Of a stretch of 64,000 nucleotides of DNA, positions 1 through 26,973 are shown one piece after another. Below the pieces are notes generated by a model. That model searched no databases, was not told the DNA's origin, and saw only the letters and a program-made list of their open reading frames with translations. Source of the stretch: Pleurostoma richardsiae (lineage: Eukaryota; Ascomycota; Sordariomycetes; Calosphaeriales; Pleurostomataceae); NCBI GenBank assembly GCA_030052745.1, contig JANBVO010000013.1, positions 703,614 through 767,613 on the forward strand. The letters run 5' to 3'. Each line of letters starts with the position of its first letter. Position 1 is the first letter of the stretch. A program made the translations under genes and the position numbers.

Positions 1-3000
1 TTCTCGTTTCCGAAAATCAACTTGATGCCGTCAGCCTTCCCGGACAGGATATCAGCGATATGCGATCCGGTCCAGTGAGTCAGCTGGTTAGCATAGCGGT
101 GGTCAGGGAACTCCCGTAGTAAATCCTCCAAGATCGCCTCGCTGCTCTTTGAGGGAGTTGCGATACCGGTCCGGACGATGCGGCCGTCAACTAGGTCGAC
201 GATTCTGGTCTCCTCCAACAGTCTATACAAGTATTCACACAGTCTTCCGTGTTGTGACACATGAGGAACACGTTGCAGTTCCTGCCCCGACACAGCTGCG
301 GCAAGGTCGCAGCCTAGGGCTTTGAACGATTCAACCGTGAGCGCCACGCAGAGGTTAGCCTGTTTTGGCATGACATTTTCGAGATATCCTGAGCAGCGAT
401 GATCCTCAATGAAATGATCGGTGCGGGCCTTGGACTCTCCAAATGCTTCAAGGATTGCTGATGACGGAAGCTCCAGAGGGGCAGGGGTTTGAGAGCCATT
501 GATGCCATTGCTAACCCCAGGTTCTGTCACAGCAGAAATGTGTGTCGAAGGCGGAGTGCCAATACCGCTGGATATGGAGCTCTCAGTCGTCGTGTCTTGT
601 CCATCCTTGCTTGTCTTGTTGTCTGAGGTGGAGGAGGCCGAAGAGGTTCCCCTGGAATCGCCACCGTCCTCGTCGGTTACGCCTAAGGCGGACCGGAGAC
701 ACGCAAGGAGGCCAGGGAGATCGACCACGTGCATCAGGTCGTCGGTGTTCAGGCTGCAGCTGAAGGTGGACTCGATGTCTCGTGCCATCTCCATGCCCAT
801 AAGCGAGTCGATTCCGATATCTGCCAGATCTGTGTCGTCTCGAATTTCACCCGGTTCCAGTCCAGAGATCTCAGCAAGGACGACCTTGAGCTTGCCAAGG
901 AGATCTGGATGTTTTTCATTCGGGGCGTCTGGGAGATCTGCGCTTGTGGTTGTCCCGATCGGAGCAATGGACGCGACTACGTTTGATTGCGAATGCGGCG
1001 ACGGGTGGACTACAGGAGTCGAGTCTTCAGTGATGCTGGGCGAGGATCGTCCGGGACTGAGCCTAGCCAACAGCTTTGACATGGAAAGCTTCGACACTCT
1101 AGCATAGTTGATGCCAAGAATGACCTCGACGAGAGACCCAGAGACATCTTCAAACACGAAGATGTCAGTGAGGAAAGAATTGCCCGAGGCGTCACGGCTG
1201 TGTTGAGCCAGGATGTTCCACGAATGCAACTGATCGCCGTCCTCTTGCTCGGCCTTGGTCATCCGGGGGGATTTCGTCCATTGCTCAAAGCCGTTGGCTA
1301 TAAACATATCCTGATCGTTTTGGTTCGCAATGCAATTAACCCATATGCCTCCAACCTGGCTAAAGCAGTCGCCGAGCAAGGGATCAAGCCAGGTCTCGCG
1401 GCTACGTCTCCGTACAACCCGGCCAGCGGACTCACTTCGGCGTCCGACGAGCTTCTGAAGGCCAAAGAAGGCTGATCCATAGTCGACAACGTCAGAGAAG
1501 ACCTTGTAGATGCTTCGCCCTTGGATAACATCGTCGGCATCGTGGCTGTGCAGAAGATCCAGGCACCGCTGATGGCTCACCAGGCGCTCGAGCCGGTCAA
1601 ACTCGGTGCGGTACTGAACATTCTTCGGATCTTGGAAGTAAACTGCGCCAATCACATGCGTGACGGCTGCACTACCATCCTGCGCATTATTGCTGAAGAT
1701 CCTGAAGCTCCAGGCGTGGGACGTTGCGCTTATGGGCTTGAATTCCAGGTAGACGGTCCTCATCGGGTTTACGCAGATGGGAGACTGGTTACTGACGTCC
1801 CGAATCTGTGGTTGCAGGCCCTCCCGGGCGATCTCTGGGTGGACACTCATGATTGCCTCTACGGCTAGGTCAATCTGAAGAGTAGCGGGACAAATGGGTG
1901 CCGTCCTTGCGATGACGTGGCCCGCCACGATGTCCTGGTACTTTTGCATCTCTGTGTTAATGCGAAAGCAGGCATAGTCCTGCTTGTTGTCTTTGTAGCC
2001 CAAGAAGGTGTAGAGCATCTTCGTTTGGCTTTCTGGTACGTCAATGTGAGAGAGGATCTGCTTCGGGGGTGCCTTGAATTCGAGCCAGTGGCGCTGCTTG
2101 TCGAATTGGTATGGTGGAAGGATTAGAGAGGCGTACTCATACGAATGTGACTTGGCATGCAGCCAAAAGTGTGCCCGGGTCCCTGTTTTCCAGAGACTCA
2201 TCGTCATGTCAGTGAGCTGTTGAGGGCCCTGACCGCTTGTGATATTCACGGGTACGAAGTTATGAGCTTTAGGCGTATTGAGGGCTCTGCTCGCCATATT
2301 GGTGATCGTGGAGTTTGACCCGGCTTCAAGCCAGACAGCTGACGGATACAAGGCCTCCAGGCGCTGGGCAGCGTGGCTGAAATAGACGGGATCACGCATA
2401 TGATCGGCAACGTATGCTGATGTGGGCTGTTCCGTTTGATGGTTCCTGGTTGCCCTTTCAAGCGGGATCTCAGAGGATGTGAAACTCAGGCTATGGCCTA
2501 ATTTCTGCAGGTCCGTCTTGAGATTATCGACCAGAGGCGAATGGAAGGCGTTGGTAACGTTAAGTCTTTTGTACTTGATTACAACACCGTCCTGACGACT
2601 GGAGATTGCAGATTCGACAGCGTCAATCGAGGTCGTGGATCCGGCTACTGTGAAGCTCCTCGGACCGTTGAAGCAAGCTATAGAAGCAGCCCCGCCGGCT
2701 GCTTTCACAATGTTTTGGACGTCTTGCAAGTCCGCCTCCACGGCCATCATTGCTCCCTTATCGGCGCCCCATGAGTCCCTGATGATCTTGGATCGGCCAA
2801 AAACCATTCGTAGAGAGTCTTCGAGTCCCAGAGCTCCCGATACGCAGAGTGCTGTGAGCTCCCCGAATGAATGGCCTAACACGGCCACTGGTTGGACTCC
2901 GCTCTCAATCCAACTCATTGCACAGGCGTACTGCATTGAGAACAAAATCGGCTGCAGTTCCGAAGGATTCTGGAATGGCTCTCGTTGAAAGATGCCTGGG

Positions 3001-5936
3001 AAGATACTTCTGGCACCGATACTGCGGCAGACCCGATCGCATTTCTTCAGGTAATTGCGCAAGACTCTACAGCCGTCGTAGACTTGCCTGTCGAGCCCCA
3101 CGAAGGTCGAGATCTGGCCTCCGAAACAGAGAATGACAGGGCGCGGTGCTGGTAGAGTTATGAGCTTGCTCTTGTCATCTTCTATGTCTGCTAGGCTCTG
3201 GTCGAATTCGTCCAATGACTTGCTAGTGAAGATGAAGGCCGTCTCAAGAGACCAGTTGGATTGACGAGCCATATTGAAAGAAAGGTCCTGTAGACTGAAG
3301 TCTTTCGCAGCGACGGCCCTCTTCTGGGCCACAAACTGGCGGAGCCGTTTAGCGTAGGACCTAATACTTTTTTCATCTATTCCCGAGATCCAAAAAGGCA
3401 GTTTGGAGAATGCGGAACTTGCAGTCACGTCGTTCGATCGGGACGGTCCCAGTCGCGGTGCTTGCTTGACGATCATAGAAGCGTTCGAACCTGACGCTCC
3501 ATAATTATTGATCAAGGCGGCTTTACAGCTCGCCTGCCAGGGGATGGCTTTCTTTACAATTTGCATCATGTCTGATGCGGAGACGTTGATTGAGGGGTTC
3601 ATCGTATCGAAACTTGCCTGTGGAGGAATGGTTTGTTGATGAATCATGAGGAGCACCTTGATGAGCGAAACGACGCCCGAGCTTCCTTCTGTGTGCCCAA
3701 CGAGGCCTTTAACGGAGCCAAACTGGATTGGACTTGACGATGCGTTGTCGCCTTTAGCGGTAGAAGAAAACGCCGAACGAATACTCTCGTACTCGGCTGG
3801 GTCACCAACTGGGGTACCGGTGCCGTGGGCTTCGACATACGTTATTTGATTCGGCGCCAGGCCAGACTTTTTAATGACAGTCTTGAAGAGGTGGGATAGT
3901 GACGGCACATTGGGTACGAAAATAGGGGTGCAGTTTTCATTCTGGTAGACGGCAGTCCCAGGAATGACACCGAATATTTGATCCCCATCAGCAACAGCCC
4001 GTGACATCTTCTTGAGAAGCACCGTCGCAATAGCCTCGCCCCTACAATACCCATCTGCCTTGGCATCGAAGGGCTTGCATTGACCCGTTGGGCTCAGAAA
4101 GGAGGCTGCGGCAAGGTTCTGGAACCAGAGTGGTGAGCTGATGAAATTTGTGCCTCCTGCTAAGGCTGCCGAGCAATCGCCATTGAGAATGGCCTGACAG
4201 GCTTGATGGATAGCGACGGCGGATGCAGAGCAGGCTGTGTCAATGGTAAGTCCGGGGCCGGTCCAACCAAAGTAGTGACTGATCTTGCCGGCAATGAAGC
4301 TTCGCAAATTGCCGGTAGCCGAGAAGGCATTGGGAGGGTGGTGAGAGACGTTATTTTCGTAGTCAGTGGCATTCGTGCCGATAAAAACTCCGATTTGACG
4401 CTCTTGCTCAGAACGAGGCTTCTGGAAATAGCCTGACATGGTGACCGCCTGGTACGCATTCTGCAACAGCAATCTTTGCTGGGGATCCATCGAAACAGCT
4501 TCCCGTGGGGTCTTCTTGAAGAACTTGTGGTCGAAGGCGTCGTAGTCGTCGATAAGATTGGCGAACCATTTTCTGCTATTATCTGGCTCAGGCCTGAAGG
4601 CTGTCTGAAATCCGAACCGCGGATTATTGGATATCTCCTTGTGCTGAGACTTGCCTTCTGCGAGGATATCCCAGAAGCTCTCTAAGTCTGAAGCGCCAGC
4701 TACCTTGCAGGCCATCCCGATGACCGCAATGTCGTTAGCACCAGTAGATTCAGGTTGACCGTCGAGTTCCCCAAAATGTATCACTCGGGACTGGAGCTTC
4801 TTCAGCACAGTGGATGGGACGCATCGCTCAGGCCCAAAGGAAATGACATGGAGGTCTGTTCCGTTCGGTAACGAGGATATGGCTCCTTCGAACGTCTCAA
4901 TCCAGTTAGAGTGGTCCATCAATATAGCCCTCAGAGCGTCCTCGTGAAGTCCTCTTCCACTTTGCGTGGTGCTGATATTATCCCCTGTGGCCATGTGTAT
5001 GGGTAGGACCATGCTGGTAACATCCGGGAGTTGAAAAGAGGGATAGTCGTGGCAGAATTGTAAGAGAGTCTCAAAGTCCGCCTCATGTAGTCGGTTATGA
5101 AACCGGCCATGCAAGCCAATCTCATTAGCGGTGATTCCGGCTGCGCTCAGCTTATCCTTCAGGCTGAGCAGAGAGCTCTTCGCTGTCGTAACGGTTGCTC
5201 GGTTGTGGTCATAAGATACGGCAATATACGCCTAGGTTTTTTTCTCTGTTAGATGTGGTCCAAATGTTTAGGTGGAGTCCTCTATTCTCACCTCAGGGAA
5301 CTCCTGTATGATTCTCCCAAGTTCAGCCTCTGCTTCCTCATTTTTCCACGCAGTTGCGAGGGAAACAGATTTTCCCATAGCATCATCCAAATCCTGGGCA
5401 TCAACAACTGCTCCAATTGCCATAGCCAAGCGTAGAGCGGCTGCTCCATTATCACAAAACTGAGCTCGGTTTCGGCTGCAGGCGACTGCCGTTGCACTGA
5501 GAATACCCAAACAGAAACCCAAGGTCGATGAATTGCGTGGTGGACTGAATGGTGCAAGTCCATTGACACTACCCTCTGGGTCATGCAGAAGCTGGCTGTA
5601 TTCTGAGAGTTGTGATATAACAACCAACGGACTGAGAAGGATGTTTGGGAGCTGAAATTCTGCGTATTCTCTCAAGGTTCCCTCATGAACCCACTCAAGC
5701 AGGCCGTTGAGTTGAGACTCTCCGTCGATCAACTTCAGCTTTGGTAGTCGGTTTTTGAGAGCTTGCCAGTAGCTAGGCAGATCCTCGACAACATCCAAGA
5801 TCCACCGAGATTCACGACTGCTCGAGATGTATGAACGAACTCGTTCGAAGTAGTCTTCTCGAAAAGAGAGAGCTTGGGGCCCGAATAAGAGTACTGTGTC
5901 CCATTCCGACCCTTCATTTGACGGGTATTCCAGCAT
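1..5936 (-). CDS. Non-reducing polyketide synthase, SAT-KS-AT-PT-ACP-CMeT (3' end outside window)
   Basis: Builds an aromatic polyketide by iterative condensation without reduction. Exon 1 is 5936..5292, the intron 5291..5232 (60 bases, GTGAGA...CTAG), and exon 2 runs open from 5231 past base 1, giving at least 1958 residues. Domains seen in order: SAT with GFCLG (Cys142); KS from about residue 383 with DTACSAS (Cys549, codon 4232..4230) and EAHGTGT; AT with GHSFG (Ser1003); product template with His1320 (VAGHVI) and Asp1503; one ACP with GIDSL (Ser1691, codon 806..804). The last ~180 residues resemble the start of the C-methyltransferase domain of azaphilone/citrinin-type NR-PKSs. Whether it ends in a reductive-release or thioesterase domain cannot be seen. 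The start ATG at 5936 lies directly before a normal SAT N-terminus. It shares its promoter with the HR-PKS, which suggests that SAT takes the HR-PKS product as starter (inference). Confidence 0.95.
5232..5291 (-). other. Intron of the NR-PKS gene
   Basis: The donor GTGAGA follows codon GAG at 5292 and the acceptor CCTAG precedes GCG at 5231. Removing these 60 bases joins two halves of the SAT domain in phase 0; without splicing the frame stops at 5268. Confidence 0.85.
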
Positions 5937-6640
5937 TGTGTCGGTTGATCAAGTCTGTGAGGTGGGTAGCTAACCGTCGTTGGTTGAGGAAAACAATGGC
6001 TCTTGACAAATGTCCTATAAAGCTTTTTCGCTGCATGAAGACAGAACCAAAGGTGAGCTTAATTCTCTACTGCTTGAAGACTGTTGGTAAGAGGCCCCAA
6101 TCTCGAGGTACCAGTCAAATGGCCGAGTGAAGGAACGCGGTTCGGACGCTGAGGTTCCTTCTACACGGAGTTGAGATTAGAGGATCGGTATATTGCTCGA
6201 AGTCGAGGGCCTTCCATTTCCGGAGTTCATGCAGGCCGCCTGAAAGAGCAGATCTCACATAAGATGCGCCACGCTGGAGCAATCCTCCAGCCAACTCCAT
6301 TCCGGAGTTCAACCCGGAGTATCTCTGAGGCTACCCTAGATGCCTTTCAATTACTCCGTTATCAAAGCTCAACAACATGGAACTCTGGGATATCAATAGA
6401 ATTCGCATAAACGGAACTGGATTAGTGCGATTAACGCACTTCCTTGACTTCTGGGCGCCTGCCTAGTGCCCTTGGAGTAACACCGTGCTTGGGTATGGTT
6501 AAGAAATCCGCTATGGTCCTACGGCCGCATATTAAGAGATACACCGCGCGCAATCACCAACTCTTAGTAACTGGAAGCCGGCCGAAGGCATCTTCATTTG
6601 TCAAGCCCATTCAAGGTTCTGGAAGAGATCGGATCCCGCC
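5937..6640. promoter_or_regulatory. Bidirectional promoter shared by the two PKS genes, with clustered CGGAGT motifs
   Basis: This 704-base stretch separates the two PKS start codons and holds no convincing gene. It has CGGAGTT on the plus strand at 6166, 6221 and 6303, CGGAGTA at 6315, and CGGAGT on the minus strand at 6353..6358. Around 6293..6309 an AACTCC half faces a GGAGTT half across five bases. CGG-containing half-sites are typical targets of Zn2Cys6 regulators, one of which is encoded at 21606. That this regulator binds here is inference. Confidence 0.6.
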
Positions 6641-9600
6641 ATGACGTCCGCCCCTATTGCCGTTATTGGCATGGCCTGCCGCTTTGCTGGAGGCGTCGAC
6701 ACTCCTGAGAAACTCTGGACGTTGTGTGCGGAAGGCCGCAGCGGTGTAAGCAAACTCAGACCTCACCATTGGCGGTTTCTCTACCCTAAATCGACACCTG
6801 TGTCAGACAGGCTTGGAAATTCCGGATTAAGGGGGAACACGCAACCTTGCTAACTTGGGAGCCTTAGTGGAGTGAAATTCCAACCTCGAGGTTTAATGTC
6901 GACGGCGTATACCATCCCAATTCCCAAAAGACCAACACCGTACGTGTCTCCTTCTGAGAGTAGAGGCCCTGGTGTCATGGAAAGGCTTAGCTGACTTCGT
7001 ACTACTCCATCAGCAAAACGTCCGCGGAGGTCACTTCCTCTCCGAAGACCCCGCTTTCTTTGACGCCAGCTTTTTCAGTTTGCCATCGGAAATCGCATCT
7101 GTACGTTCAGAGATCGAAACTTATGAACTGCCAGAATGGGGAGAAATCTTCTAAACAACCGGAACCGGGAATAGGTCATCGACCCGCAGTTTCGACTTCA
7201 GCTAGAATCAGCGTATGAGGCCTTCGAAAGCGGTAAGCCCCTAGAGATATACAATTTGACATTATGGAACGTATGTGGCTAACGTATAACTTGCCCGATT
7301 TCAGCGGGTCTCACGCTTCAGGATGTTGCTGGCTCCAATACTGCTGTCTTCGCTGGTGCTTTCTTCCGCGACTATGCCGAAGGCAACATACGCGATCCCG
7401 AGGCCCTGCCTCGCTACTACCTCCTTGGAGTCGGTTCCGCTCTGGCAGCGAACCGAATTTCTCACTTCTACGACCTGCGGGGTCCAAGCATGACCATCGA
7501 TACCGGGTGTTCAACGACACTGACAGCACTCCACCAGGCGTGCCAAAGTCTCAAAATAAGCGAGGTACCTTGCCCAGATTGTCTAGATGGAAACCCTTCC
7601 ATTCATACGTATTTCGATATTAACACTGCAGTAGTGTGATATGGCCATGGTTGGTGGTGCTAATATCATATTGAATCCTGATATGTCCATAGGTCAGCAT
7701 GAACAAAGTCTCGGATGAACCCCTTGCTATGGTGAAATATTTGCTAACCTTCATATCTTTCTAGTCATGTCATCTTTAACGTGCGTTATACCCCAGGCTC
7801 CATACTCATATGGTGATCTCTGACAAACGGAAACAGGCTTCTGTCGCCCGATGGCAGGTCATACGCATTTGATAGCCGTGCTAACGGGTATGGACGTGGT
7901 GAAGGCTCAGCCACGGTGCTTCTCAAGCGGCTGGATGATGCCCTGCGTGATGGTGATCCCATCCGTGCGATCATCCGGGAAACAGCAGCGAATCAAGACG
8001 GGAAGACAGAAACCATCACGACCCCGAGCGGGGCAGCCCAGGAAGAACTAGTTCGCGCCTGCTATCGCAAGGCTGGTCTTGATCCGGCCCAGACAGCATA
8101 TTTCGAAGCCCATGGGACAGGTACCCCAACGGGGGACCCCATCGAGGCCAAATCCATCGGCTCGGTCTTCAAGGACAGTCGGTCCGATGGTCAGCCCTTG
8201 CGTATCGGCTCTGTGAAGACAAATATCGGTCACACGGAAACATCCAGCGGTTTAGCAAGTATCATCAAGGTTGCTCTTGCGTTGGAAAATGGCCAGATAC
8301 CCCCGAGCGCCAATTTCGAGAAGCCCAATCCGAAAATTGACCTCGATACGTGGAGGCTCAAGGTCCGTTACTGTGAAAGACCTCTGCTGTGTCTGGCTCA
8401 CAGAGACGACTAACGCCCTTTCGGAGTAGGTGCCGACCAAGCTGGAGCCTTTTCCTGAGATTAGCGGCGTCTGCCGTGCCTCTGTCAATAACTTCGGTTA
8501 CGGCGGCGCAAATGCTCACGCCATCATGGAGAGATATTCATCCTTTGTCGCCTCCGGCGAACCGAAAAGTCGTTCCAATGGGCATACTAACGGTCACACC
8601 AATGGCGACTTGAACGGTCTTACCAACGGCAACGGTAACAGCCATCAAGGAGGCGTTGAAAGTACTGGTCAGCCAAGCAGCAGCCGACCACGCGTCTTTG
8701 TCCTTAGCGCGAAGGATGAGCAGGCCGTCAGCAACATGGAAGTAAACCTAAAGAACTATCTCACAACTTCAGTCAAGGCCAAGTCCAATGAAGCCGAGTT
8801 TCTCGATGATCTGGTCTATACACTTGGCCAGCGCCGTACTAGGTTTCCATGGATTTCCACCGCGTCGGCACACAATTTATCAGACCTTATCTCCATACTG
8901 GAGTCGAGCAAGACAAAGAAGGCCCGGACCGCTGAGAAGAAGCCAAGGCTCGGTTTTGTGTTTACAGGACAGGGTGCCCAGTGGTACGCAATGGGCAGAG
9001 AGCTCATTGCAGCATATCCAGTCTTCAGGGATTCCCTGACTGAATCCGAAGGTATACTGAAAGGTTTCGGATGTCCCTGGTCACTCATGGGTGAGTTAAT
9101 ACCCTGTCCCGAGCGACAGAACTCCGCAGCTAATGGCACCTCCAGAGGAGCTGACAAGGGACCCCGAAACGGCCAGGCTTGGCGAGCAGCACTTGAGCAT
9201 GCCAGTCTGCGTCGTCCTGCAGATCGCCTTAGTGGAGTTGCTCTCATCTTGGGGCATCAGGCCTTCGGCGATCTCTAGTCATAGTAGTGGCGAGATCGCA
9301 TCGGCTTTTGCCGCGGGCGCTCTGGACAAGAGGAGCGCCATCGGCGTCGGATATGCGCGTGGACAGTTTGTGCCAGACTCCAAAGGAGGAATGATTGCTG
9401 TGGGACTTGGCCACGAGGCCTGTGATAACTACATCTCGCGAATTACATCAGGGAAAGTCGTGGTGGGATGTATCAACAGCCCAAACAGCACCACAATATC
9501 GGGAGATGCGTCGGGCGTCGACGAGATTGAAGAGCTGCTCAAGGCCGATGGGGTATTTGCTCGGCGACTCCGGGTCAGCACTGCGTATCACTCGCACCAC

Positions 9601-12600
9601 ATCTCCGTCTTCTCGAACGCCTATGAAGCCTGGATCCGTGACAAGGTAGCCCCGCGGAGACCAGAAGGCTTCAGTGTCAACGATAACGAGCTGGACTCCA
9701 TTTTCTCTTCACCAACCTACGGTCGGCGTGTATCATCTGCCAAGGCCTTGCTTGATCCTGTTCACTGGGCCAGAAGCCTATCCAACCCTGTTCAGTTCGT
9801 CGATGCATTCAAGGAGATGTGCCTCGGCGAAGGGGACTCATCTCTGGAAGTGGATCACATCATAGAAATCGGGCCTCATTCCGCTCTGGGAGGGCCCATT
9901 CGAGAGATAGTATCTCTGCCAGAGTTCCAAGGTCGCAAGCTACCATACAGCCCGTCTCTCGTGAGGAATACCGACGCTACAGTCACGACACACGCTCTTG
10001 TTTGCGACTTGTTGTGTGCAGGATATCCCGTCGACATGGAGGCTGTCAACTTCCCTTTCGGGAGACACGGCATCAAGGTCATCCCTGACCTACCGCATTA
10101 TCCTTGGAATCACCAGGTCAGGCACTGGTGTGAACCTCGCAACAACAGGGCCTTGAGGGAGCGAGCGGAACCCCCGCATGACCTGCTCGGCTCCCTCGAG
10201 CCTGGAACAAATCCAGAGAGCCCAACATGGCGGAATATGATCAGGGATTCTGAGCTTCCTTGGGTACGAGATCACATGGTGCAATCTAACATGGTCTATC
10301 CCGGCGCAGGGTTCATCTGCAGTAAGTGCCAATCCCTTTCCCTTGAATTGGCCCCAAGGCTCTTCCCGGAAGGTGGTTACTGACCAATCCTCTGAGTATA
10401 GTGGCCATCGAAGCTGCTGCGCAGTCGTGGAATACCGCAGGTAAAACAATCTCAGCCTACAAGTTTCGCGACATCGAAATTCTCCAGGCTCTTGTCATTC
10501 CCGATGATTCAAGAGGTGTTGAAGCTCGTCTGGAGCTGCGGCCGTGCGGTGACAAAGCCATATATGCCAAGGGTTGGAAGGAGTTCATCATTTCCTCAGT
10601 CACAATGGAGAACAAGTGGACGGAGATCTGCCGCGGACTTGTCACAGTTGAGCTCGGCGATCAACGGGCAATGTTAAACAGCGAGCAGCTTGTTCAGCCA
10701 ATGGATCTGGAAGCTTACAGGATCAGGATCTTCCCACCGGACTTGTACGCCGGGATGCGGTCCGTCGGCATCTTCCATGGTCCTATCTTTCAAAATCTGA
10801 AGTCCATTCGAGCTCGTAACGACCAGTCCGTGGCAATCCTCACCGTGCCCGACACTGCTGCTGTCATGCCATACGAGTACCAGCGACCACATGTCATCCA
10901 TCCGACAACACTCGACACGGTGGTTCAGAGCGCCTACGCTGCTTTGCCGGAGTCCCGGTCGAACAGCATGCAGCAACCATTCGTACCCAGGTCGATCAAG
11001 TCAATGTGGATATCACACAGCATCAGCAAGACTCCCGGCCATACGTTTCGATCTTATGCTATTCTGACCCATAAGACAAAACAGAATGCTCAGACGACAC
11101 TAACGGTGCTTGACGATGGAAACTCGCCTGTCATACGGATGAATGGGCTCACGTTGCAATCACTGGGTACCACTGCGACACCCCCAATAGAGCGCCTCTA
11201 CGAGAGCGAAAAGCTTAGCATCGCAAAATGGGCTCCTGACATAACACCCACGCCCTATACATATTTAAAGCAAGAGCTCAAGTTGCCGACGACCGATTCT
11301 GAGATGGAAACTATTCTGGATCTCAAGCGAGTCTGCTTCTACTTCATTCAGGACGCTCTCAAAGCTCTTGCCGATACAGAAGTCGCTGGGTTCGAGGGGC
11401 ACTTCCAGAAGTATTGCAATTGGATGAAGGTGCAGTCCGAGCTCGCCCAGAGCAATAAGTTTGCAGCGGACAGCTGTCAATGGGCGAATGACCCAGTTAG
11501 GTCTAGGAGGAGGCTCATGGCAAAAGCAAAAACTGCGAGTATCAACGGCGAGATGGTCTGTCGGCTCGGCCCGTCGTTGGTCTCGATTATGAAACAGGAA
11601 AAGACCCCGGAGCAATTGATGCAGGGAGATTCTCTTCTTAGCCGATACTTTGTTGATGCCCTCAGGTGGAACCGGTCTCGTCGCCAGATAAGTGCTCTGG
11701 TGCAGCACCTTGTCCATAAGCTGCCCAGGGCCAGAATCTTGGAGATAGGAGCTGGAGCAGGCGGGACGACAAAGAATATTCTCAACGTAATCGGGACTGA
11801 TGGTTCCGGCTGGGGTCCACTGGCAGCAACCTATCACTTCACGGATGTGTCCTCAGCGTCATTCGAAGCCGCACAGGAGAAGTTTAAACCCTGGAAGAAC
11901 TTGGTCCAATACAAGAAGCTCGACATCGAACAGGATCTGTCTAAGCAAGGGTTTGAAACCGGTTCCTATGATCTAGTTGTCGCCTCGCAGACGTTGCATG
12001 CGACGAAGGCCATACGGCACACTATGGCCGCTGTTCGGCGCTTGTTGAAGCCAGGAGGCAAGCTCTTCATCGCAGAGACCACTAGAGACCCGGTGGACAT
12101 ACCCTTTGTCTTCGGACTGCTACCCGGCTGGTGGATAGGTTAGTCTATCTTTAAAGTACCTTTGGCAATACGCACGAGTGAAGTACTGACATTCGATGGG
12201 TAGATGGCGAAGAAGGGAGACGCTCTAGTCCTTCTTTATCGGTCTCAATGTGGGACGGTGTTCTGAGAGATTCCGGCTTCAGCGGTGTAGACCTTGAAAT
12301 GCGCGACTATGACGATGATGAACTGTACGCTTTGAGCGTTATGGCCTCGACCGCATTGGAAGACAAGGAACATCCGACGCCGGCTAACACGGCCGTGCTT
12401 TTAGTCACAGCCGACACTGAGGCGGACAAACCTCCACAAAGCTGGATTAAGGCGTTCGCCGCTGAGATCGCCGGCATCACTGGCAAAGAACCCACTGTGG
12501 CATCACTCGAAGAAGGAGACCCTGGCGGCAAGCAATGCATTTACCTGGGTGATCTGGCCGGCACATCGGTACTCAAGGCACCGACCAGCTCGCAGTTTGA

Positions 12601-15282
12601 AGCCGTCAGACGTCTCTGTACCGCCTCTAGAGGGCTCTTGTGGGTTACTAGAGGAGGGTGCATTGGCTGCGAAGACCTCGACTCGTCTATGGCTGCAGGA
12701 CTGTTACGTTCTGTCAGGGAAGAGTATGCAGGCAAGCAGTTGGTTACCTTAGATCTGCACTCGAGTGCTGCAGATGCGTGGTCGGAGAGTTCTATTGCAC
12801 ATCTGATCCAAGTCTTCAAAACGGCCATCGGTTCAACAAGGACAGAGGCGGATCAAGAGTTCGAGTTCGCGGAGCGAAATGGCACGCTCTATGTACCTCG
12901 ATTCTACAAGGATGTCGAGAGGACTCAGGCTGCCTTCACCGATGAGTCCAGCGGCGCTCAACGCGCCCCGGCTAAGGAGCACTTCCGCCAGGAAGGCCGA
13001 GTACTTAGGATGTACATCGGCACTCCTGGCCTTCTCGACACAATGACATACAGGGATGACACCGATTTCGTCCACGGTGCCCTCCACCCAGATTACATGG
13101 AGGTCGAGCCGGCGGCTTTTGGCGTCAACTTTCGCGATGTTATGGTGGCCATGGGGCAGCTTGGCACCCAGACGGCCATGGGCTTTGAGTGTGCCGGCGT
13201 GGTGACCCGCGTCGGCACCAATGCTGCTGCTCAAGGGGACTTCAAGCCCGGGGACAGGATAGCAACAATGCTGTTTGGGAACTACGCCAGCCTTGTGCAG
13301 ATGCCATACACCAACGCGGCGCACATTCCTGATAGCTTAGACTTCGAGACGGCAGCCTCGATACCAATGGTATTTGCGACAGCCTATATTGCCCTTTTTG
13401 ACACAGCCAGGCTGAAAAAAGGTGAGAGTGTCCTGATTCATGCTGCGACAGGAGGTGTTGGCCAGGCTGCTATTATCCTGGCTCAGCATGTTGGTGCTGA
13501 GATCTATGCAACGGCTGGTACTCCAGAGAAGAGAGCACTATTGATCGAAAAGTACGGGATCCCCCCCGGACATATCTTCTCGAGTCGCGATACATCTTTC
13601 GGGGGCGGCGTGCGCTCAATAACACACGACAAGGGCGTTGATGTCGTTCTCAACTCTCTATCAGGACCGCTGCTGCAAGAAGGCTTCAACTGTCTGAGAC
13701 GCTTCGGGCGCTTCGTGGAGATTGGGAAGCGCGACCTCGAGGTCAACAGCAGCCTAGAGCTGGCTACTTTCAACCGCTGCGTTTCCTTTTCGCACATCGA
13801 CCTCTCGCAGACCTCTTTGTATGATGGTGCTCTTCTCCATCGCACCATGAAGGAGATCATGCGACTCTTTAGTGAAGGCCACATTCGAACGGTCACACCC
13901 TTGACAGTTTACCCGCTGTCTGAACTTGAGAAGACTTTCCGCCTCATGCAGGCTGGTAAGCACGTCGGAAAGATCGTCATCGCAGTGACCCCCGACGAGC
14001 TTGTACCGGTGAGTTCCTTGGCTATGTCTACCGCCCTTCGTTGCAGGACTTACTGACGGTACGAAATCAGGTTCAATCCCAGAGGCCACTAGCAAGGCTT
14101 CGATCTGACGCGTCGTATCTGATTGTCGGTGGCGTCGGGGGGATCGGGCAGTCTGTGGTCCAATGGATGGCCGAGCATGGTGCCGGAAACCTCATCGTGC
14201 TTTCTAGAAGTGCAAGTAGGGATGGCAAGATAGCAGCACTAGAGAAGGAGATAGCCGCATTCGGCACCAAAGTGAAGGCAGTCAGCTGCGACGTCACAGA
14301 CGAGTACGAACTGGTGAAGGCGTTGTGGCGCTGCCAACGGGATATGCCACCAATCCGTGGTGTGATTCACGGGGCAATGCTTTTGCGAGTAAGTGCTTTC
14401 TGATCAGACTGGTGCCCAATTTGAAGCTATGGGGGGTGGCTGACAATGTCCTTCTAGGACTCGATTTTCGACCAGATGACATATGAGAACTATCAAGCAG
14501 CCGTGCGGCCAAAGGTCCAGGGGAGCCTGAACCTGCATCGAGCCTTTGATGGCATGGAGCTGGACTTCTTCATTATGCTCTCTTCTATTGTTGGCGTCAT
14601 GGGTAATCTCGGTCAGGCCAATTACTCGGCTGGAGGCAGCTTCCAGGACGCACTTGCGACATATCGAAACTCACGCGGCCTGGTGGGAGCTTCAGTCGAC
14701 ATCGGCGTCGTTCGCTCGGTGGGCTACGTTTCGGAACACAGCGACACGGCCAAATTCCTTATCGACATTGGCCACAGATTACTGACGGAAGACGATGTGC
14801 TCAAGGCCATTGGCTACGCAGTGGCCTCCCCATACTGTGGCCAGATCATCCTTGGTCTGAACACGGGCCCTGGGCAACACTGGGAGAAGACTTGCATGGG
14901 TCGCGATATGCGTTTCGGCCCCCTGCGGTACCGAGAGACGACCACTCAGGCTTCGGCACCATCCGGTGGCGCAGCTGACATGGGCGCTAAGATTTCCCAG
15001 GCGACCACCCTCGAAGACGCAGCGGATGCAGTGGTGGAAGGGGTTCGCAAGAAGCTCATGGACATTTTCATGCTGTCGGAAAGCGAGGTTGACGTATCCA
15101 AGGGGCTCTCAGACCATGGAGTGGACTCTCTCGTGGCCGTTGAACTGAGGAATTTGTTGGCGTTGCGGGCCGGAGCCGAAGTCTCCATTTTCGAGATTCT
15201 GCAGAGCCCGTCCATTGCGCGCCTGGGTCTGCTAGTGGCCTCGAAGAGCAGCCATATTGACCCATCTCTTATTCCGGTATAA
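6641..15282 (+). CDS. Highly reducing polyketide synthase, KS-AT-DH-CMeT-ER-KR-ACP, 14 exons
   Basis: Iterative type I PKS making a reduced, C-methylated chain. Exons: 6641..6745, 6868..6939, 7014..7100, 7175..7232, 7305..7564, 7635..7692, 7765..7780, 7837..8362, 8430..9090, 9146..10321, 10402..12138, 12204..14008, 14071..14388, 14458..15282; together 7704 bases, 2567 residues, all junctions GT-AG. Landmarks: KS Cys176 in DTGCSTT and His311 in EAHGTGT; AT Ser661 in SHSSG (usually GHSSG); DH His991 and Asp1178 (HPTTLD); methyltransferase LEIGAGAGG near 1452; ER nucleotide motif near 1999; KR Tyr2349 (QANYSAG); ACP Ser2517 (HGVDSL). All domains look complete, so a fully reducing, methylating enzyme is expected. 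It carries no release domain, which fits hand-over to the adjacent NR-PKS. The 5' exons are the least certain. Confidence 0.93.
7765..7780 (+). other. 16-base micro-exon in the HR-PKS KS domain
   Basis: Introns 7693..7764 and 7781..7836 flank only 16 bases. Together with one base before and one after, they encode VMSSLT. The KS consensus between NPDM and LLSPDG needs this peptide, and all phases agree (1 + 16 + 526 bases). Confidence 0.75.
8578..8645 (+). repeat. Asn-Gly-rich repeat in the KS-AT linker
   Basis: An imperfect 12-to-15-base repeat encodes several copies of NGHTNG/NGDLNG/NGLTNG between the KS and AT domains of the HR-PKS. It is low-complexity and probably a flexible linker. Confidence 0.8.
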
Positions 15283-17043: not shown

Positions 17044-18575
17044 TTAGGCTACGGGCACACTCTGCTGGTTGTGAAAGACATCATGCGGGTCCACGCTTGC
17101 CTTGATATCCTTGAGCCTGTCCAGATTTGAGCCCCAGTAACCGACCCTTGCAGAATCGCTGTTCTCTCTAGGATCGACGTAGCCAGCGTATTGTGGGTAA
17201 TATGAGGCGGGATGTCCACTGGTGATGACAGTGTTCATACCATCGAGGAATTCGAATGTGGTGTCGCTCACACGGCCGCTTGTCTGGCCATACGTGAGCA
17301 TTACAAACGTCATGTCGCGATGTGGCATGGCTGTAGCATTCGAGGCAGTATTTCCTATGGCACCGCCAAGAAGCTCGAAGTTAACTGCCCAAAGCTGCGT
17401 ACCGTTCGTGGTGGTCTCGAGGTAGTCAAAGAAATTGTCAGCTACATCTCCTGGGACTTCAGTGTCCGCCTCAAAAGCGATACACTTCGCATAGAAGTAT
17501 GCCGGGTATGCCAGGCCACTCTGGATGATTTGTTCATACCATGCGACTGAGGCCACGTTGTAGTCCGTATAGACTTCTGAAGAGACTGAATCTGGTGGCG
17601 CCGTAGAGAAAAGGCTCTCCAAATCCAGAGCGTCAAGTTCTGCCTGGGTACCGAAGTAGGCCCCAGATACTGAGATGTAACCGGGATTGACGGATAGGGT
17701 AGACGACATCTGCCATGGCGCATCACCTTGGTAGACCCAGCCCTGCCAGGCCTTGAAGATCTTCGCTCTCGTGCTAGAGTTAGCTGCCGTCCACCCCAGA
17801 AAGTAGCTGACTGTTGATGGCGGCGCCGGATCAGTTCGGAAGACGAACTCGGTCACTGGAAGAGTTAGCACTCAGCAGTGAACCTTGTCGCTCCAAGTGA
17901 AATTACGGAGACGAACCGATGCCGAACGAAGCAGCCGCACCCCTTATCGCAAAAAAGAGATCAGGGTGCTGCGTTTCCGATGCGCGGACGATGGAGGAGT
18001 TGGCGAGGACAACTTCTACCTCGACGATGTGGTCAAGCGTGTATCCTGACATACGAGTGGTCGCTCCTACGCCTCCCACTGTCGCATGTCCACCAATCCC
18101 AATGTTTAGGCTGATACCGTGTGGGATGCTGCGCCGACCCGAACTGTACAGATCCCCGTTCAACTCCTCCAAAAGCATACCGGCGCCTACAGTAGCTTGG
18201 AAAGTTGAGGCATCTAGCGAGAAGGCCTTTAGGTTGTCCAAATGGATGGACAACTCGCCAGTCGAGGACCCTGTGACAATTGCGTTAGCCATGCGGTAGT
18301 AGGCCTTACTGAAAGAACTGCTTACCGTAGTTTCCATAATTGTGCCCCCCACTTCTTGGCTGCACCTTGACGCCAGCGCGGACCGCACAGGAGACTGCGG
18401 CTGCAACCTGTGCGGCAGTTGTCGGAAGGACTACTGCAGCCGGTACGACAGGAATATCCAGATTATAGGGCTCAACCGCATCGGTGTAGTTCTGCTGACT
18501 GGGAAATGCAACTAGGGTTGAGTTGCCTTGCATTGCGGCCAATAGGCACTGGGAGAAGGTGCCAAGGCCATACAT
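17044..18575 (-). CDS. FAD-linked (berberine-bridge-like) oxidase 1
   Basis: Flavin-dependent oxidase of the FAD_binding_4/BBE class, common as a tailoring enzyme in fungal polyketide clusters. Exons 18575..18326, 18270..17917 and 17855..17044 (introns of 55 and 61 bases) give 471 residues. The FAD domain has RSGGHNY, whose His is the usual 8-alpha flavin attachment, then GGHATVGGVG and RGAAASFGI; the C-terminal end has the BBE-type HDVFHNQQS. At the position where relatives have Cys (GTCPGVGIGG), this protein reads GISLNIGIGG, so a second covalent link to FAD is not expected. An in-frame TGA lies just before the ATG and no clear signal peptide is seen, so a short upstream exon is possible. 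It is divergent from oxidase 2. The substrate is presumed to be the PKS product (inference). Confidence 0.85.
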
Positions 18576-20716: not shown

Positions 20717-21605
20717 TTAATTAATTTGCGCCAGGCTGAGCAACACAGCTTGGCTGTCAGCCATCGAACACGCGCCACAGGAGTACCAAGTTATATTGCC
20801 TTCTCAACGTTCTTTCAGCTCTTTGTAACAACTCATTCTTCGTAACACAAGACATTAACCCTTCTGACCTCATATCGTGACACCTAAAGCCAGCAGGATC
20901 TGCCTCCCCGTACGTATGAGCCGAGCCTCATCCTTCCTGGCGAGGCTGGCCAATCTCAAGAGCAAGTCTCGATTGACTTGAGAAGCCCACAGAGGATTGC
21001 GTCTATAGATAGGTACCGATAGGGCGCAAAGCTGCCGGTGATCCGCTACGTACCGAGTTTGGCACGACGCCGGCGCTCCCTTGGGGCAGCAGGATGGGCC
21101 GGGCCGGGTTACGCACAGATCTTAGCGTGAGCGGCGCTCTGGGCGGCGCGATAGGACTCAGATCTTGGTCTGCAACAAGACTGTTCCGGCTTATTCCATG
21201 CAAGCCAGGGATGCCCGATCAGTACATACACTGTAAGCATTACATTAGCGCTCACCACCCTCAAGGGAACCCGTTGAGACTCCTTCGCGGGCTGGCAGTG
21301 CCGGGAAGTCGTGGCGATTGGCTTGCGTCCCGGGTATAATTATTCCGCCATCCGATTCGCCCGATTCCGCGAAGGCGCGCGCGGGATGGAGTGGCGACTA
21401 GAAATAATGTCACCATACATCCCGGCCGTTCGCTGACAACCTCGGACTTGACCTGCGGCACCCAAGACGACCTCAGCTGTGCCGATCACCGTCCGATCAC
21501 CGCCCGCGAGCCGTCCAACCCTGAGTTTAGATAAGCTGTCGTGGGGCGCCGTCCAAGTCTGCTTGCTTGCTGCTTGGCGGCCACGACTCGCCGCCGTACT
21601 CAACC
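20717..21605. other. Region upstream of the Zn2Cys6 regulator, no gene recognised
   Basis: Holds the 3' flank of oxidase 2 and the 5' flank of the regulator gene. No coding sequence is supported and no CGGAGT copy was seen here. Confidence 0.6.
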
Positions 21606-23763
21606 ATGTATGCCCGCAGCGAGTCTCGCCAGCAACCCGGATATGCCTGTGAGGGTGAGTAGCAGTCGGCCATGCCATGTCCCGTGCACTGCGGGTCCGT
21701 TTCCATCGAGCCGGGTAGTGCTAACGCAGCAGCTTCGACCAGAGTGCCGCAAGAAGAAGCTGCGGTGCGACAGACAGCGGCCTCACTGCGGGGCCTGTAT
21801 TATCGCCGGCGTCGCCTGTCGGGTCATCGACCGGCGCATGCCTCGTGGTCCAAAGAAAGGCAGCTTCGAGGCCCTTCGCAACCGCATAGGTGAACTGGAG
21901 CGACATCTCTCTAGCATCCAAACGTCCAGCGCCATCACCGCAGAGCCCGTCCAAGATCTGGAAGAGTTTGAAGGTAGGCACGCATCTGCCATGCACGCCT
22001 GAGAAGCTTCACGCCCCGCCTTACCCCTCAGGGACCGGCTGCAACCTTATGAGCAGTTGTCTGTATCCATCGGTGAAGGTCACGATGCAGGGACCGTTGT
22101 TCGGTGATTGCAGTTACTCACACTCTATGCTCTCATTCACGCACAACAGGAAAATTCTACTCTGCTGACTATCCCAGTATTGAACTGGGAGGCTTCAGAT
22201 GAAGGCCAAAACGCAAGGCTCTCAGTCTCGAGTTCGAGCACTACGAGGGACCCCCAAAGCGCTCTTGCAACCCCGACTTTCTCCAACGCGACGTCGACTA
22301 AAGCGAGCCCAACACAAAGTCTACCGTCATATCACACTTCGGTGTGCGACGACTTGCAAATATCCGATCTCATGAAGGCTGACCTGTAAGAGCTGACCAC
22401 ACCAATGGCGATGCCCCTCAGAGGCATTAGGCAGTTCTGCGATTATACTAATCGTCTGTCAAGGACTCAGCTTTACTTTGACCGCGTCCATCCTGTAGTT
22501 CCAATGTTAAATCAAGCCAGAGTTGCCCAGTTCTCCAGAGACTCGAGAGCCATGAACGAATACCGGCAGTGTTTACAGTTCGCCATGTGGACCGTGGCAA
22601 TAACGTTCTCCAGCCAGTTCGGCCACCTTCGGGAGCCCATGTACTCCAGAACGCGCGCTCTTCTCGAAGCTCTCGACAACAAAGAGTCGGACATGAGAAC
22701 ATGCCCAATTGAGCAGGTGCAGTCGTGGATTCTACTGACGTTCTACGAGTTCACCAAGTGCAGTTACCGGCGGGCATGGCTAAGTGCCGGTCGCGTCTTT
22801 CGTCTAGTGCATCTGGCTAGACTTCATAACCTGGACAATCCCAAATTTCAATCAATCAGTGAACTCGAGATGGACTCAATCGGCAAGGAGGAGAAGAGGC
22901 GCACGTTTTGGGTTGCGTACTGCCTGGACAGGTTCATAAGCGTCAGCAATGGCGCGCCAATGACCCTTCTGGAAGAAGTCGTGAGTTGAGATCGCCAGAT
23001 GGCCGGTATGAGGACAGCTCACTGACTTTCTGTTAAGGTATGCACGCGGCTCCCGTGTCCTGATATCGAATTCGTAAACGGGCCCTTAACGCCAGGGCCG
23101 TTTTTATCCGAGGTCATGGCATCTGCGGACCCGCGGGCCTACTCCCCGCTCGCTGAATGTATCATCTTGGTGACCATCTGCGGAAGGGCCCTCGTGCACA
23201 AACAGGTCACGGATGTGGAGGCACTATACGGCAACTCACCTATAGAGTTTGCGCTCCGGCATGACTGGCTCGACTCTCTACTAGTTACCCGGATGAACAG
23301 CCTGGAGGTCAACTACCCGCGGGCTTCATTAGCCAGCGACCCCATGACCATGTTCGCACATCTGGTGGCCCGAACAGCCATCATATATCTCTGTCATATC
23401 ATGGAGCCGCTCTCCAACGATATACAGACGTCACCCTTAGTCTGGAGCCAGCAAGACCGTGGTGTGGTAGCGGCCCAGGAAATCTCCCGCCTGGCAGGGG
23501 AGCTGGAACACCTCGGCTACTTCAAAGCGCACACTTTTACCCCCCTCCCTATCTATTTGAGCGCAGCCAAGCTTCGGTCCCACATAGAACGCCGGAAATC
23601 GCAGCTTCAGTCCAGCCCAGGCCTTATGCGCGAACTGGAGGAGTCCCTGCAGGCCTCTTTAGATGCACTACGGAAGCTTGGTTCGGTGAACAACCTGGCC
23701 ACCTATTACCTGGAGTTGGTGAAGGCTAACAAGACTTCGGAGATATGCTTCAGGTTGGAGTAG
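21606..23763 (+). CDS. Zn2Cys6 (GAL4-type) transcription factor, probable cluster regulator
   Basis: DNA-binding nuclear regulator. Exons 21606..21654, 21743..21973, 22178..22385, 22431..22980 and 23038..23763 give 1764 bases, 587 residues. The first join (GAGG/GTGAGT to CCAG/AGTGC) is decided by the zinc cluster: only this phase rebuilds ACEECRKKKLRC with all six cysteines in C-x2-C-x6-C-x6-C-x2-C-x6-C spacing. A basic/helical stretch (GSFEALRNRIGELERHL) follows, consistent with a dimerisation linker. Exons 4-5 are the fungal-specific middle homology region (LYFDRVHPVVP, EEKRRTFWVAYCLDRF). The ATG has a good context (tcaaccATG). The 204-base second intron and the 45-base third intron are the least certain. 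Its position inside the cluster suggests control of the PKS and oxidase genes (inference). Confidence 0.85.
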
Positions 23764-25097: not shown

Positions 25098-26973
25098 ATG
25101 GCGATTGCTGCGCGGCCTGCATCCTGGTGGTGGAAGGTCACCTTATGCTGGTGTCTGACTAGGCTTCCTGTGGCATCCACATCCCCGACAGTAAAGGATG
25201 GCACAGTCTCCTATCTCGGAACGGTGTCTGATGGAACAGAGGCCTTCCTCAACATCCGATTTGGTCAAGACACCGGAGGTGAGAGGCGTTTTCGGAATCC
25301 TCTTCCATACTCGTATCCAGCGGGTACCACCGTCAACGCCACGGCTGCAGGGGCGGCGTGCCCACAGGTCCTAGGCAATCCCGTTCCTTCCTTCACCGGG
25401 ATCTATGGCAATGTCACCGAGATATCGGAAGATTGTCTCAGTCTGCGGGTGTCCAGACTGCTTGGCACTAAGCCCAGTGCCAAGTTGCCAGTGATGGTGT
25501 ACCTTTTCGGGGGCGGATACGCATTTGGCTCTGTCTACGACGACACCGCCTATGACCCATCTGGACTCGTCAGGGAAAACGCAGCCAAGGGTCTGCCTGT
25601 AATATATGCTGCCATAAAGTGAGGCTTCTCTTCATCCTGTATCAAGCTAGTCATGATGGAGACTAACAGCAACCGTTGAAGTTACCGCAATGGTTTCCTT
25701 GGCTTTGCAGGTGAGTGCTTTATTGCACACCCGTGCCTTTGACGAGATTTATCTCGCGAACGCCGGCATAGGAGATGTTAATTTTGCTGGTGCAGCCTCG
25801 GACGCCCTGCGGAATGAAGACAACCTGAATTCTGGACTGCTAGACCAGTATCTTGGTCTTGAATGGATCCGCGACCATATCGAGGCCTTTGGTGGCAGTA
25901 AGGACGACGTGACGATCTTTGGAGAAGATGTAGGATGGACAAACGTCCAACTTCAACTCATGGCTTATGGTGGAAAAGCGAAGCCCTTATTTCACAGGGC
26001 TATTCTCCAGTCTGGGCCTACCCCGAGTGGCACGGGCTTGACCGCAGGTTTATCAGACACCCACACAGCGCAGCTGACTGGTATTCTCAACTGCACTTCA
26101 CCAACAGGAGATGGCCATGCAGAGTTGACATGCCTGAGGTCTCTTCCCCTATCAGTAATCAACACGGCAGCCGTTGAGTTCGGCCTAGCCTTTGAATCCC
26201 TCGCAGGACTGGGTACCTTTCGACCTACTGCTCCGTCGCCGTTTATCCCCGATGCGCCATCGCAGCTTCTGAGTACTGGCCGATTCCGTCAGGACGTGGA
26301 GATACTCATAGGATGGAACGAGAACGACGGGACCGTCTTCGTACCCTCGACTATCAACAGCACGGCCTACTTCTCCGCTGTCGTTGCCGCACTGTTCCCG
26401 GGCCTTTCCCAGTCGAATCTACAGACCCTGGGAGACCTCTATCCCGAGGACGCGTTCTCCGACTACCCCTCTGAAGGCATCGACCGGAACTTCTTCCGCG
26501 CGGCCCAGGTCGTGCGCGACGCCAACTTCGCGTGCCCCTCCCTCCGCCTGGCTGCGACCCTCCCGCCATCCTCCGCCTACGTCTACGCTCTTAACGAATC
26601 CGTCTTCACGCTCGGGCACGCCTTCTACAACCGCAGCTTCGTCGGCATCGACCACTTCAGCGACATGCCCTACGTCCTCGACTACGTGGCCAAGGCGCCG
26701 TACTCGAGCGTCGCCAGCCAGGCCGACTACGACATGGCCGCGCACATGTCGGGCAGCTGGGCGGCCTTCGCGACGCACGGCCACCCCACCGCTCACTACA
26801 ACGCCAATAAGACCTTCAGCGACTGGCCGTCGACGGGCGGCGGCGCCTGGCTTCGCGTGCTCGGGGGCCCACGGGACGGCGCGTCGTCGATCGGCTCCAC
26901 GTACGGTGAGGAGCTACCGGCACGCTGTGCGTTCTGGGGCCAGTCTGACGTTCTGGCACAGACGTATGCATGA
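25098..26973 (+). CDS. Carboxylesterase-family protein lacking the nucleophile serine
   Basis: Alpha/beta-hydrolase of the type B carboxylesterase/lipase family. Exons 25098..25618, 25682..25710 and 25796..26973 give 1728 bases, 575 residues. A signal-like hydrophobic N-terminus follows ATG 25098 (aaaATGg context; an in-frame ATG at 25062 is an alternative). Family landmarks are VYLFGGGYAFG (oxyanion hole), NYRNGFLGF, DQYLGLEWIRDHIEAFGGSKDDVTIFG and GWNENDGTVF. The nucleophile elbow, normally GESAG, reads GEDVG: the serine codon is GAT (25927..25929, residue 228). The acid and a His in a GIDHFSDMPYV stretch are kept. Hydrolysis by the classical mechanism is therefore unlikely. The last part of exon 3 is clearly richer in GC than the start. 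It is the last gene that plausibly belongs to the cluster. Confidence 0.85.

What the first reader, a model, noticed from the sequence alone, without database searches (positions are those of the whole stretch)
1..15282. Divergent SAT-NR-PKS (with CMeT) and fully reducing, methylating HR-PKS
Both synthases look intact and share one promoter. A SAT domain with its Cys142 and an HR-PKS without release domain imply direct starter transfer. Known clusters with this layout make azaphilones, sorbicillinoids or related methylated aromatics. The combination with two different BBE-like oxidases and a questin-oxidase-like gene nearby does not match any single known cluster I can recall, so the product may be new.
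Basis: partly seen in the sequence, partly recalled or inferred. Interest (0 to 1): 0.8.

Follow-up and report, generated by a model that had tools for sequence, protein, structure and literature searches.

The report
Fungal azaphilone pigment gene cluster
Two neighbouring polyketide-making genes of the fungus Pleurostoma richardsiae belong to an intact gene cluster of a well-known kind that probably makes azaphilone pigments, and the second enzyme more likely supplies a side chain than the starting block.

Summary
An intact NR-PKS (minus strand) and an intact HR-PKS (6641-15282) diverge from a 704-bp gap; the SAT nucleophile is Cys142. The left flank, fetched here, completes the NR-PKS with CMeT and a reductive release domain and adds a ketoreductase, an O-acyltransferase, a SorC/AfoD/TropB-type monooxygenase, an MFS pump, an SDR and an FSH1 hydrolase. 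The organism is Pleurostoma richardsiae. This is the azaphilone core set: NR-PKS 61% identical to Hfaza1A, acyltransferase 59% to Hfaza1E, PT dyad intact (unlike sorbicillin SorB). Two FAD-dependent oxidoreductases in an azaphilone cluster with both PKSs have a precedent (azaG, azaL). No held paper joins 'Pleurostoma' and 'azaphilone', yet 185 orphan clusters of this class were already published. A new, uncharacterised member of a known kind.

The parts
1..5936 (-). NR-PKS SAT-KS-AT-PT-ACP-CMeT-R, the part inside the window (exons 5936-5292 and 5231 onwards). The gene goes on to -2037 (C35:701576-709549). Further left, outside the window: ketoreductase -3719 to -2384 (+), O-acyltransferase -5417 to -4038 (+), FAD monooxygenase -7246 to -5864 (-), MFS -9954 to -8031 (-), SDR -12175 to -11153 (-), FSH1 hydrolase -14009 to -12938 (-)
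   Evidence: NR-PKS. Flank genes:
5937..6640 (.). 704-bp intergenic region between the two divergent PKS genes, presumed bidirectional promoter
   Evidence: gene starts, length; promoter function not tested
6641..15282 (+). HR-PKS KS-AT-DH-MT-ER-KR-ACP, 14 exons, 2563 aa, no release domain
17044..18575 (-). BBE-like FAD oxidase 1, SorD-like
   Evidence: Pfam BBE and FAD_binding_4; SorD 506 bits
18999..20716 (+). BBE-like FAD oxidase 2, only distant relatives among solved structures
21535..23763 (+). Zn2Cys6 transcription factor (exons incompletely modelled)
   Evidence: Zn_clus, Fungal_trans
25098..26973 (+). carboxylesterase; membership in the cluster uncertain
   Evidence: Pfam COesterase; model
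28611..29861 (-). questin-oxidase-like protein; membership in the cluster uncertain
   Evidence: Pfam Questin_oxidase 2.4e-87

Best explanation
An intact azaphilone biosynthetic cluster of Pleurostoma richardsiae working in the azanigerone manner. Shown here: domains, intact motifs and kinship. Inferred: all of the chemistry. The NR-PKS loads acetyl through its SAT, builds a C-methylated hexaketide, its PT closes the ring (C2-C7) and its R domain releases a benzaldehyde. The ketoreductase reduces the side-chain ketone. The SorC/AzaH-type monooxygenase hydroxylates and dearomatises the ring, giving the bicyclic pyranoquinone. The HR-PKS makes a short, methylated, reduced acyl chain that stays on its ACP, and the Hfaza1E-like O-acyltransferase moves it onto the new ring hydroxyl. 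The two BBE-like oxidases and possibly the questin-oxidase-like protein tailor the product; the MFS protein exports it.
For: NR-PKS 61% identical to Hfaza1A and 63% to Hypoxylon homologues; acyltransferase 59% to Hfaza1E. Proteins of all five families named for finding azaphilone clusters (nrPKS, hrPKS, serine hydrolase, FMO, O-acyltransferase; PMC8596599 section 12) lie in one 30-kb stretch. PT dyad His1320/Asp1503 intact, as in 60 of 66 NR-PKSs aligned, window included. NR-PKS and acyltransferase have the same tree sister, Cryphonectria, whose two genes are on contigs of equal length, while the window's HR-PKS groups with Truncatella, Ustulina and Xylaria, and the Cryphonectria HR-PKS listed lies elsewhere in the tree and on another contig: the HR-PKS is the more exchangeable partner. 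hfaza1 has NR-PKS, ketoreductase, FMO and acyltransferase but no HR-PKS (PMC7898651 passages), so an NR-PKS of this kind need not be HR-primed. SAT is 45% identical to Hfaza1A against 37% to UvSorB and 35% to CazM; at 9 discriminating columns it matches the acetyl set at 6, the HR set at 1, neither at 2.
Against: The SAT tree does not exclude kinship with the HR-started SorB clade (window+Cryphonectria+SorB, p-AU 0.369; window+Cryphonectria+Hypoxylon 0.149; window+Hypoxylon alone 0.0176). The relatives Truncatella and Cryphonectria carry a Gly at SAT column 102 that is otherwise seen only in CazM and the SorB clade. In Truncatella NR, HR and acyltransferase homologues are all close and on contigs of equal length, so there the three travel together. 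In chaetoviridin biosynthesis one HR-PKS serves both roles. The Hfaza1A and Hfaza1E functions are themselves bioinformatic proposals. No expression or product data exist here.
Confidence: 0.65

Rival explanations
1. The HR-PKS primes the NR-PKS: its methylated reduced chain passes from its ACP to the SAT Cys142 and is extended (asperfuranone mode), or it does both jobs (chaetoviridin mode).
For: SAT with intact Cys142 and an HR-PKS without release domain; SAT in one supported set with HR-started UvSorB; synthase homologues also adjacent in Pleopsidium, Kuettlingeria and Loekoesia by consecutive gene numbers; Gly at SAT column 102 in the relatives Truncatella and Cryphonectria.
Against: The same anatomy is proposed not to work so in azanigerone. 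A ketoreductase, needed in Monascus for the acetyl-started hexaketide, is present, while group B Hypoxylaceae clusters, thought to have extended NR products, lack one (PMC8403587 section 18). The serine hydrolase is absent from the caz and trigazaphilone clusters and present here, although starter-mode asperfuranone has one. SAT column 102 is Ser, as in 35 of 67 rows, not Gly as in CazM and SorB (post hoc).
Confidence: 0.28
2. A sorbicillinoid-type cluster: HR-primed NR-PKS releasing an aldehyde that cyclises without the PT, then SorC/SorD-like oxidation.
For: NR-PKS falls in one strongly supported set with UvSorB; FMO best matches SorC and BBE 1 best matches SorD among solved structures.
Against: PT dyad His/Asp intact; it is Tyr/Glu in UvSorB (PMC13300579 passages). 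No acyltransferase or FSH1 hydrolase is listed among the sor genes in the passages read (T. reesei does have an SDR, sor7). No hit named from Ustilaginoidea, P. flavigenum, P. paradoxum or Conoideocrella among the 120 listed HR-PKS homologues. SorD pocket residues Asp254, Thr359 and Phe387 read Thr, Asn and Leu here (alignment).
Confidence: 0.04
3. Two unrelated pathways lie side by side, the HR-PKS and NR-PKS not collaborating.
For: Proximity alone is not proof; clusters can lie close together or intertwine (PMC8403587 passages).
Against: In at least nine named fungi a listed NR and a listed HR homologue are on a contig of the same length, three times with consecutive gene numbers.
Confidence: 0.03

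Closest known systems
hfaza1 azaphilone cluster of Hypoxylon fragiforme
   Same: NR-PKS 61% (Hfaza1A) and acyltransferase 59% (Hfaza1E) identical; FMO, KR, transporter and transcription factor also present by family (PMC7898651 passages)
   Different: hfaza1 has seven genes and no HR-PKS; its acyl chain is proposed to come from fatty acids; the two FAD-dependent oxidoreductases sit in a second cluster, hfaza2
azanigerone (aza) cluster of Aspergillus niger
   Same: NR-PKS plus HR-PKS, serine hydrolase, FMO, O-acyltransferase, two FAD-dependent oxidoreductases azaG/azaL
   Different: A. niger NR-PKS P0072 (probable AzaA) only 52% identical and P0192 (probable AzaB) 47%; gene order not compared; no questin-oxidase-like gene mentioned in the passages read
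group B azaphilone clusters of Hypoxylaceae (multiformin type)
   Same: NR-PKS, HR-PKS, FMO, acyltransferase, FAD-dependent oxidoreductase at one locus (PMC8403587 section 18)
   Different: they lack the ketoreductase, present here; the Jackrogersella minutella and Daldinia NR-PKSs listed fall in a distant part of the tree, though whether they are group B enzymes was not checked
sorbicillin (sor) cluster
   Same: NR+HR pair, SorC-like FMO, SorD-like BBE oxidase, NR-PKS in one supported set with UvSorB
   Different: PT dyad lost in UvSorB, intact here; acyltransferase and FSH1 hydrolase here
homologous loci of Truncatella, Pleopsidium and Xylogone (no product known to me)
   Same: NR, HR and acyltransferase homologues on contigs of equal length
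   Different: context beyond these genes could not be read

Membership tests
azaphilone biosynthetic cluster | NR-PKS with SAT-KS-AT-PT-ACP-(CMeT)-R (group VII in PMC8596599) | tested here: met
   domains; kin of Hfaza1A; the group VII label itself was not tested
azaphilone biosynthetic cluster | active PT (C2-C7 aldol closure) | tested here: met
   His1320/Asp1503 align with the dyad; activity not assayed
azaphilone biosynthetic cluster | FAD monooxygenase of the AzaH/AfoD/TropB type | tested here: met
   AzaH itself was not available
azaphilone biosynthetic cluster | O-acyltransferase of the AzaD/MrPigD/Hfaza1E type | tested here: met
   59% to Hfaza1E; HNMMD motif; AzaD and MrPigD not available
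azaphilone biosynthetic cluster | makes an azaphilone | not testable with these tools
   no chemistry available
azanigerone-mode cluster (HR product as O-acyl chain) | HR-PKS dispensable for the core, supplies the acyl chain | tested here: inconclusive
   indirect: for; 59, 61 do not decide
starter-transfer cluster (asperfuranone/chaetoviridin mode) | SAT of the HR-acyl-loading kind | tested here: inconclusive
sorbicillin cluster | PT dyad lost | tested here: not met
   with PMC13300579
sorbicillin cluster | SorA-type HR-PKS | tested here: inconclusive
   no hit named from four SorB-clade species among the 120 listed homologues; SorA itself not compared

The most novel reading that the evidence does not exclude
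The locus is a living intermediate between azaphilone and sorbicillinoid pathways: an azaphilone core with intact PT combined with a SorD-like oxidase whose pocket has changed, so that the end product would be an oxidised or dimeric azaphilone of a type not described. In the same NR-PKS lineage the SAT starter choice would have switched repeatedly, marked by Ser or Gly at SAT column 102 (Ser here; Gly in CazM, the SorB clade, Truncatella and Cryphonectria), which would make starter choice predictable from sequence.
Probability: 0.12. Interest if true: 0.5.

Novelty: new member of a known kind. Interest (0 to 1): 0.28.

Why it matters
It assigns an orphan dual-PKS cluster of Pleurostoma richardsiae, a fungus named in papers on grapevine, olive and clinical moulds (listing only), to the azaphilone pigments. 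It also shows that 'SAT plus HR-PKS without release domain' does not by itself mean starter transfer. The homologous NR/HR/acyltransferase sets in Truncatella, Pleopsidium and Xylogone, beside NR/acyltransferase pairs for which no HR partner was listed, give a series in which the two modes could be told apart experimentally.

Tried and rejected
Sorbicillinoid reading: suggested by SorC/SorD matches and the SorB-containing set, rejected on the PT dyad and gene content. SAT phylogeny as arbiter of starter choice: tried with 67 rows (65 of the 120 listed homologues cover the SAT, plus CazM and the window), then with 25 rows and three AU tests; undecided. Discriminating SAT columns: 9 columns, from four rows taken as acetyl-type and three as HR-type, two of which are close kin, so weak; column 102 is post hoc. 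HR-PKS phylogeny: 47 of the 120 listed homologues, chosen by me, plus the window; it does not separate acyl-donor from starter HR-PKSs because the functional labels are too few. Acyltransferase tree: 28 of the 113 listed, chosen by me, own entry included. Branch-length ratio of SAT to the rest as a sign of changed specificity: looked at, not used, because the window row is average. Gene-order comparison with aza, caz and afo: not done; no annotated fungal records with context were at hand. NCBIfam scan of six proteins: weak SDR matches for one, nothing for five. The identities AzaA=P0072, AzaB=P0192 and MrPigA=P0027 are probable only (species, pairing, annotation), not verified; P0115=UvSorB is supported by its length of 2641 aa and Tyr1343/Glu1524 as printed in PMC9570055 and PMC13300579.

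A first script for the SAT tree failed on a missing motif and was repeated with a looser motif.

Full report
WHERE IT IS. The window is contig C35:703614-767613 of a 39.4-Mb genome and ends at the contig's right end. Forty kilobases to the left were fetched and joined in a script; the overlap matched. Window coordinate x is contig position 703613+x, so left-flank genes have negative coordinates. The acyltransferase of the flank is 100% identical to 'Transferase [Pleurostoma richardsiae]' on a contig of 767613 bases, the length of C35. P. richardsiae is in Calosphaeriales, Sordariomycetes.

THE TWO SYNTHASES. The NR-PKS starts at 5936 (minus), has an intron 5291-5232, and stops at -2037. SAT, KS, AT, a weak PT match, ACP and the methyltransferase helix-turn-helix are found in the window, CMeT and an NAD_binding_4 reductase in the flank. 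A 66-nt stop-free stretch in the CMeT (-172 to -237, GCAAGT...CAG) is read as a GC-AG intron: it is spliced out in the public prediction P0001 and absent from P0002, P0006, P0007 and P0072. SAT Cys is residue 142; KS DTACS, AT GHSFGE, ACP GIDSL and R YGDAK are present, and the PT dyad is His1320/Asp1503 in the model without that stretch. The HR-PKS runs 6641-15282 in 14 exons (2563 aa) with KS, AT, DH, MT, ER, KR and ACP matches and nothing after the ACP; key motifs are present. The first KS exons were placed by hand with recalled KS motifs. The genes are divergent, 704 bp apart.

THE NEIGHBOURS. Left, outside the window: GRE2-like ketoreductase at -3719 to -2384, O-acyltransferase at -5417 to -4038, FAD monooxygenase at -7246 to -5864 (SorC 391 bits, AfoD 356, TropB 353), MFS at -9954 to -8031, SDR at -12175 to -11153 and FSH1 hydrolase at -14009 to -12938, then a nucleoside-hydrolase-like gene and a sugar transporter that look unrelated. 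Right: BBE-like oxidase 1 (SorD 506 bits), BBE-like oxidase 2 (best solved relative 106 bits), a Zn2Cys6 factor, a carboxylesterase and a questin-oxidase-like gene, then TPR, TRP-channel and glycosidase genes. In BBE 1 the FAD-linking His78 and Tyr80 of SorD are kept, while Asp254, Thr359 and Phe387 read Thr, Asn and Leu (read off the alignment; residue roles from PMC11934079 passages).

KINSHIP. NR-PKS: 120 homologues listed; besides the window's own entry the best named are Hypoxylon enzymes at 60-63%, among them Hfaza1A (61%) and an H. rubiginosum NR-PKS (61%), then Pleopsidium and Truncatella (60%); A. niger P0072 52%, Monascus P0027 54% over 63% of the query. HR-PKS: Truncatella 60%, Pleopsidium 58%, Xylogone 55%. 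Acyltransferase: Truncatella 65%, Hypoxylon NC1633 64%, Thozetella 64%, Cryphonectria 63%, Hfaza1E 59%. NR and acyltransferase homologues share one in at least eight (Truncatella, Pleopsidium, Xylogone, Hyphodiscus, Hypoxylon NC1633, Cryphonectria, Thozetella, Phlyctema). In Cryphonectria, Thozetella, Phlyctema and Hypoxylon NC1633 no listed HR-PKS homologue has that contig length; the lists are cut at 120, so this is not proof of absence. Hyphodiscus has a reported azaphilone, hyphodiscorubrin, putatively linked to its dual-PKS cluster (PMC7496686 passages).

TREES. KS-AT part of the NR-PKS (66 rows): the window pairs with Cryphonectria (99*) inside an 18-row set (100*) with Truncatella, Thozetella, eight Hypoxylon enzymes including Hfaza1A, and a six-row clade holding UvSorB. 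KS to C-terminus, 25 rows: pair with Cryphonectria 100/100, further placement weak. Acyltransferase, 28 of 113 listed: pair with Cryphonectria 100/95 in a 12-row set (100/99) with Hfaza1E, Truncatella and Thozetella. HR-PKS, 47 of 120 listed: with Truncatella, Ustulina and Xylaria (99*), while the listed Cryphonectria HR-PKS lies elsewhere. So NR-PKS and acyltransferase travel together and the HR-PKS less strictly; in Truncatella all three are near relatives.

STARTER OR SIDE CHAIN. Published precedents (PMC8596599 passages and section 12): azanigerone, HR-PKS proposed to make only the acyl chain for AzaD, since its deletion leaves azanigerone E; asperfuranone, HR-PKS makes the starter; chaetoviridin, both. 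For the side-chain mode: the acyltransferase, the ketoreductase (Hypoxylaceae group B clusters lack one, PMC8403587 section 18), the FSH1 hydrolase (absent from caz and trigazaphilone clusters, but present in asperfuranone), the hfaza1 kinship without HR-PKS (PMC7898651 passages), and the inheritance pattern above. Against or neutral: the SAT tree (67 rows) puts the window in an 18-row set (100*) holding both Hfaza1A and UvSorB. AU tests on 25 rows reject window+Hypoxylon alone (0.0176) but neither window+Cryphonectria+Hypoxylon (0.149) nor window+Cryphonectria+SorB (0.369). At nine columns that split four rows taken as acetyl-type from three HR-type SATs the window matches 6, 1 and 2 neither. 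SAT column 102 is Ser in 35 of 67 rows including the window, and Gly in 9: CazM, the six-row SorB clade, Truncatella and Cryphonectria; the other 23 rows have Cys, Thr, Ile, Asn, Met or Ala. This is suggestive and post hoc. I hold the side-chain mode at about 0.65 and starter or dual use at about 0.28.

NOT SORBICILLIN. P0115 has the length (2641 aa) and the dyad residues Tyr1343/Glu1524 reported for UvSorB (PMC9570055 and PMC13300579 passages). The window's dyad is His/Asp, as in 60 of 66 rows including itself. That the sorbicillin NR-PKS belongs to a clade that also holds the azaphilone NR-PKSs was already in print (PMC5635595 passages).

NOVELTY. A cblaster survey had found 193 clusters of this class, 185 of them orphan (PMC8596599 section 12). 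No held paper contains both 'Pleurostoma' and 'azaphilone'; the 14 papers listed for 'Pleurostoma richardsiae' and 'genome' have no such title. I judge it a new, uncharacterised member of a known kind. The exact set with a SorD-like oxidase and a questin-oxidase-like gene was not met in the passages read, but borders are unproven.

Noticed in passing
L009, window -237 to -172: A 66-nt stop-free stretch in the NR-PKS CMeT domain begins GCAAGT and ends CAG and is spliced out in the public protein P0001: a probable rare GC-AG intron.
   Followed up: yes
SorB-containing clade P0115, P0089, P0079, P0084, P0091, P0097: The PT dyad is Tyr/Glu, His/Glu, Gln/Glu or intact His/Asp (Conoideocrella, sister to UvSorB) within one clade, so PT decay may have happened more than once.
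   Followed up: partly
SAT column 102 (window residue Ser102): Among 67 rows Gly occurs only in CazM, the SorB clade, Truncatella and Cryphonectria; Ser in the enzymes taken as acetyl-type and in the window; possible starter-choice marker.
   Followed up: partly
window 27302-28240 (-): 313-aa open frame with coding bias, no Pfam or NCBIfam match, next to the questin-oxidase-like gene.
   Followed up: no
G000 C66, C49, C52, C35: SAT-domain matches on four contigs of the genome, so probably three further NR-PKS genes besides this one.
   Followed up: no
lichen contigs (Pleopsidium, Kuettlingeria, Loekoesia): Lichen-fungus records carry consecutively numbered homologous NR/HR-PKS genes, a possible source of azaphilone-type pigments.
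   Followed up: no
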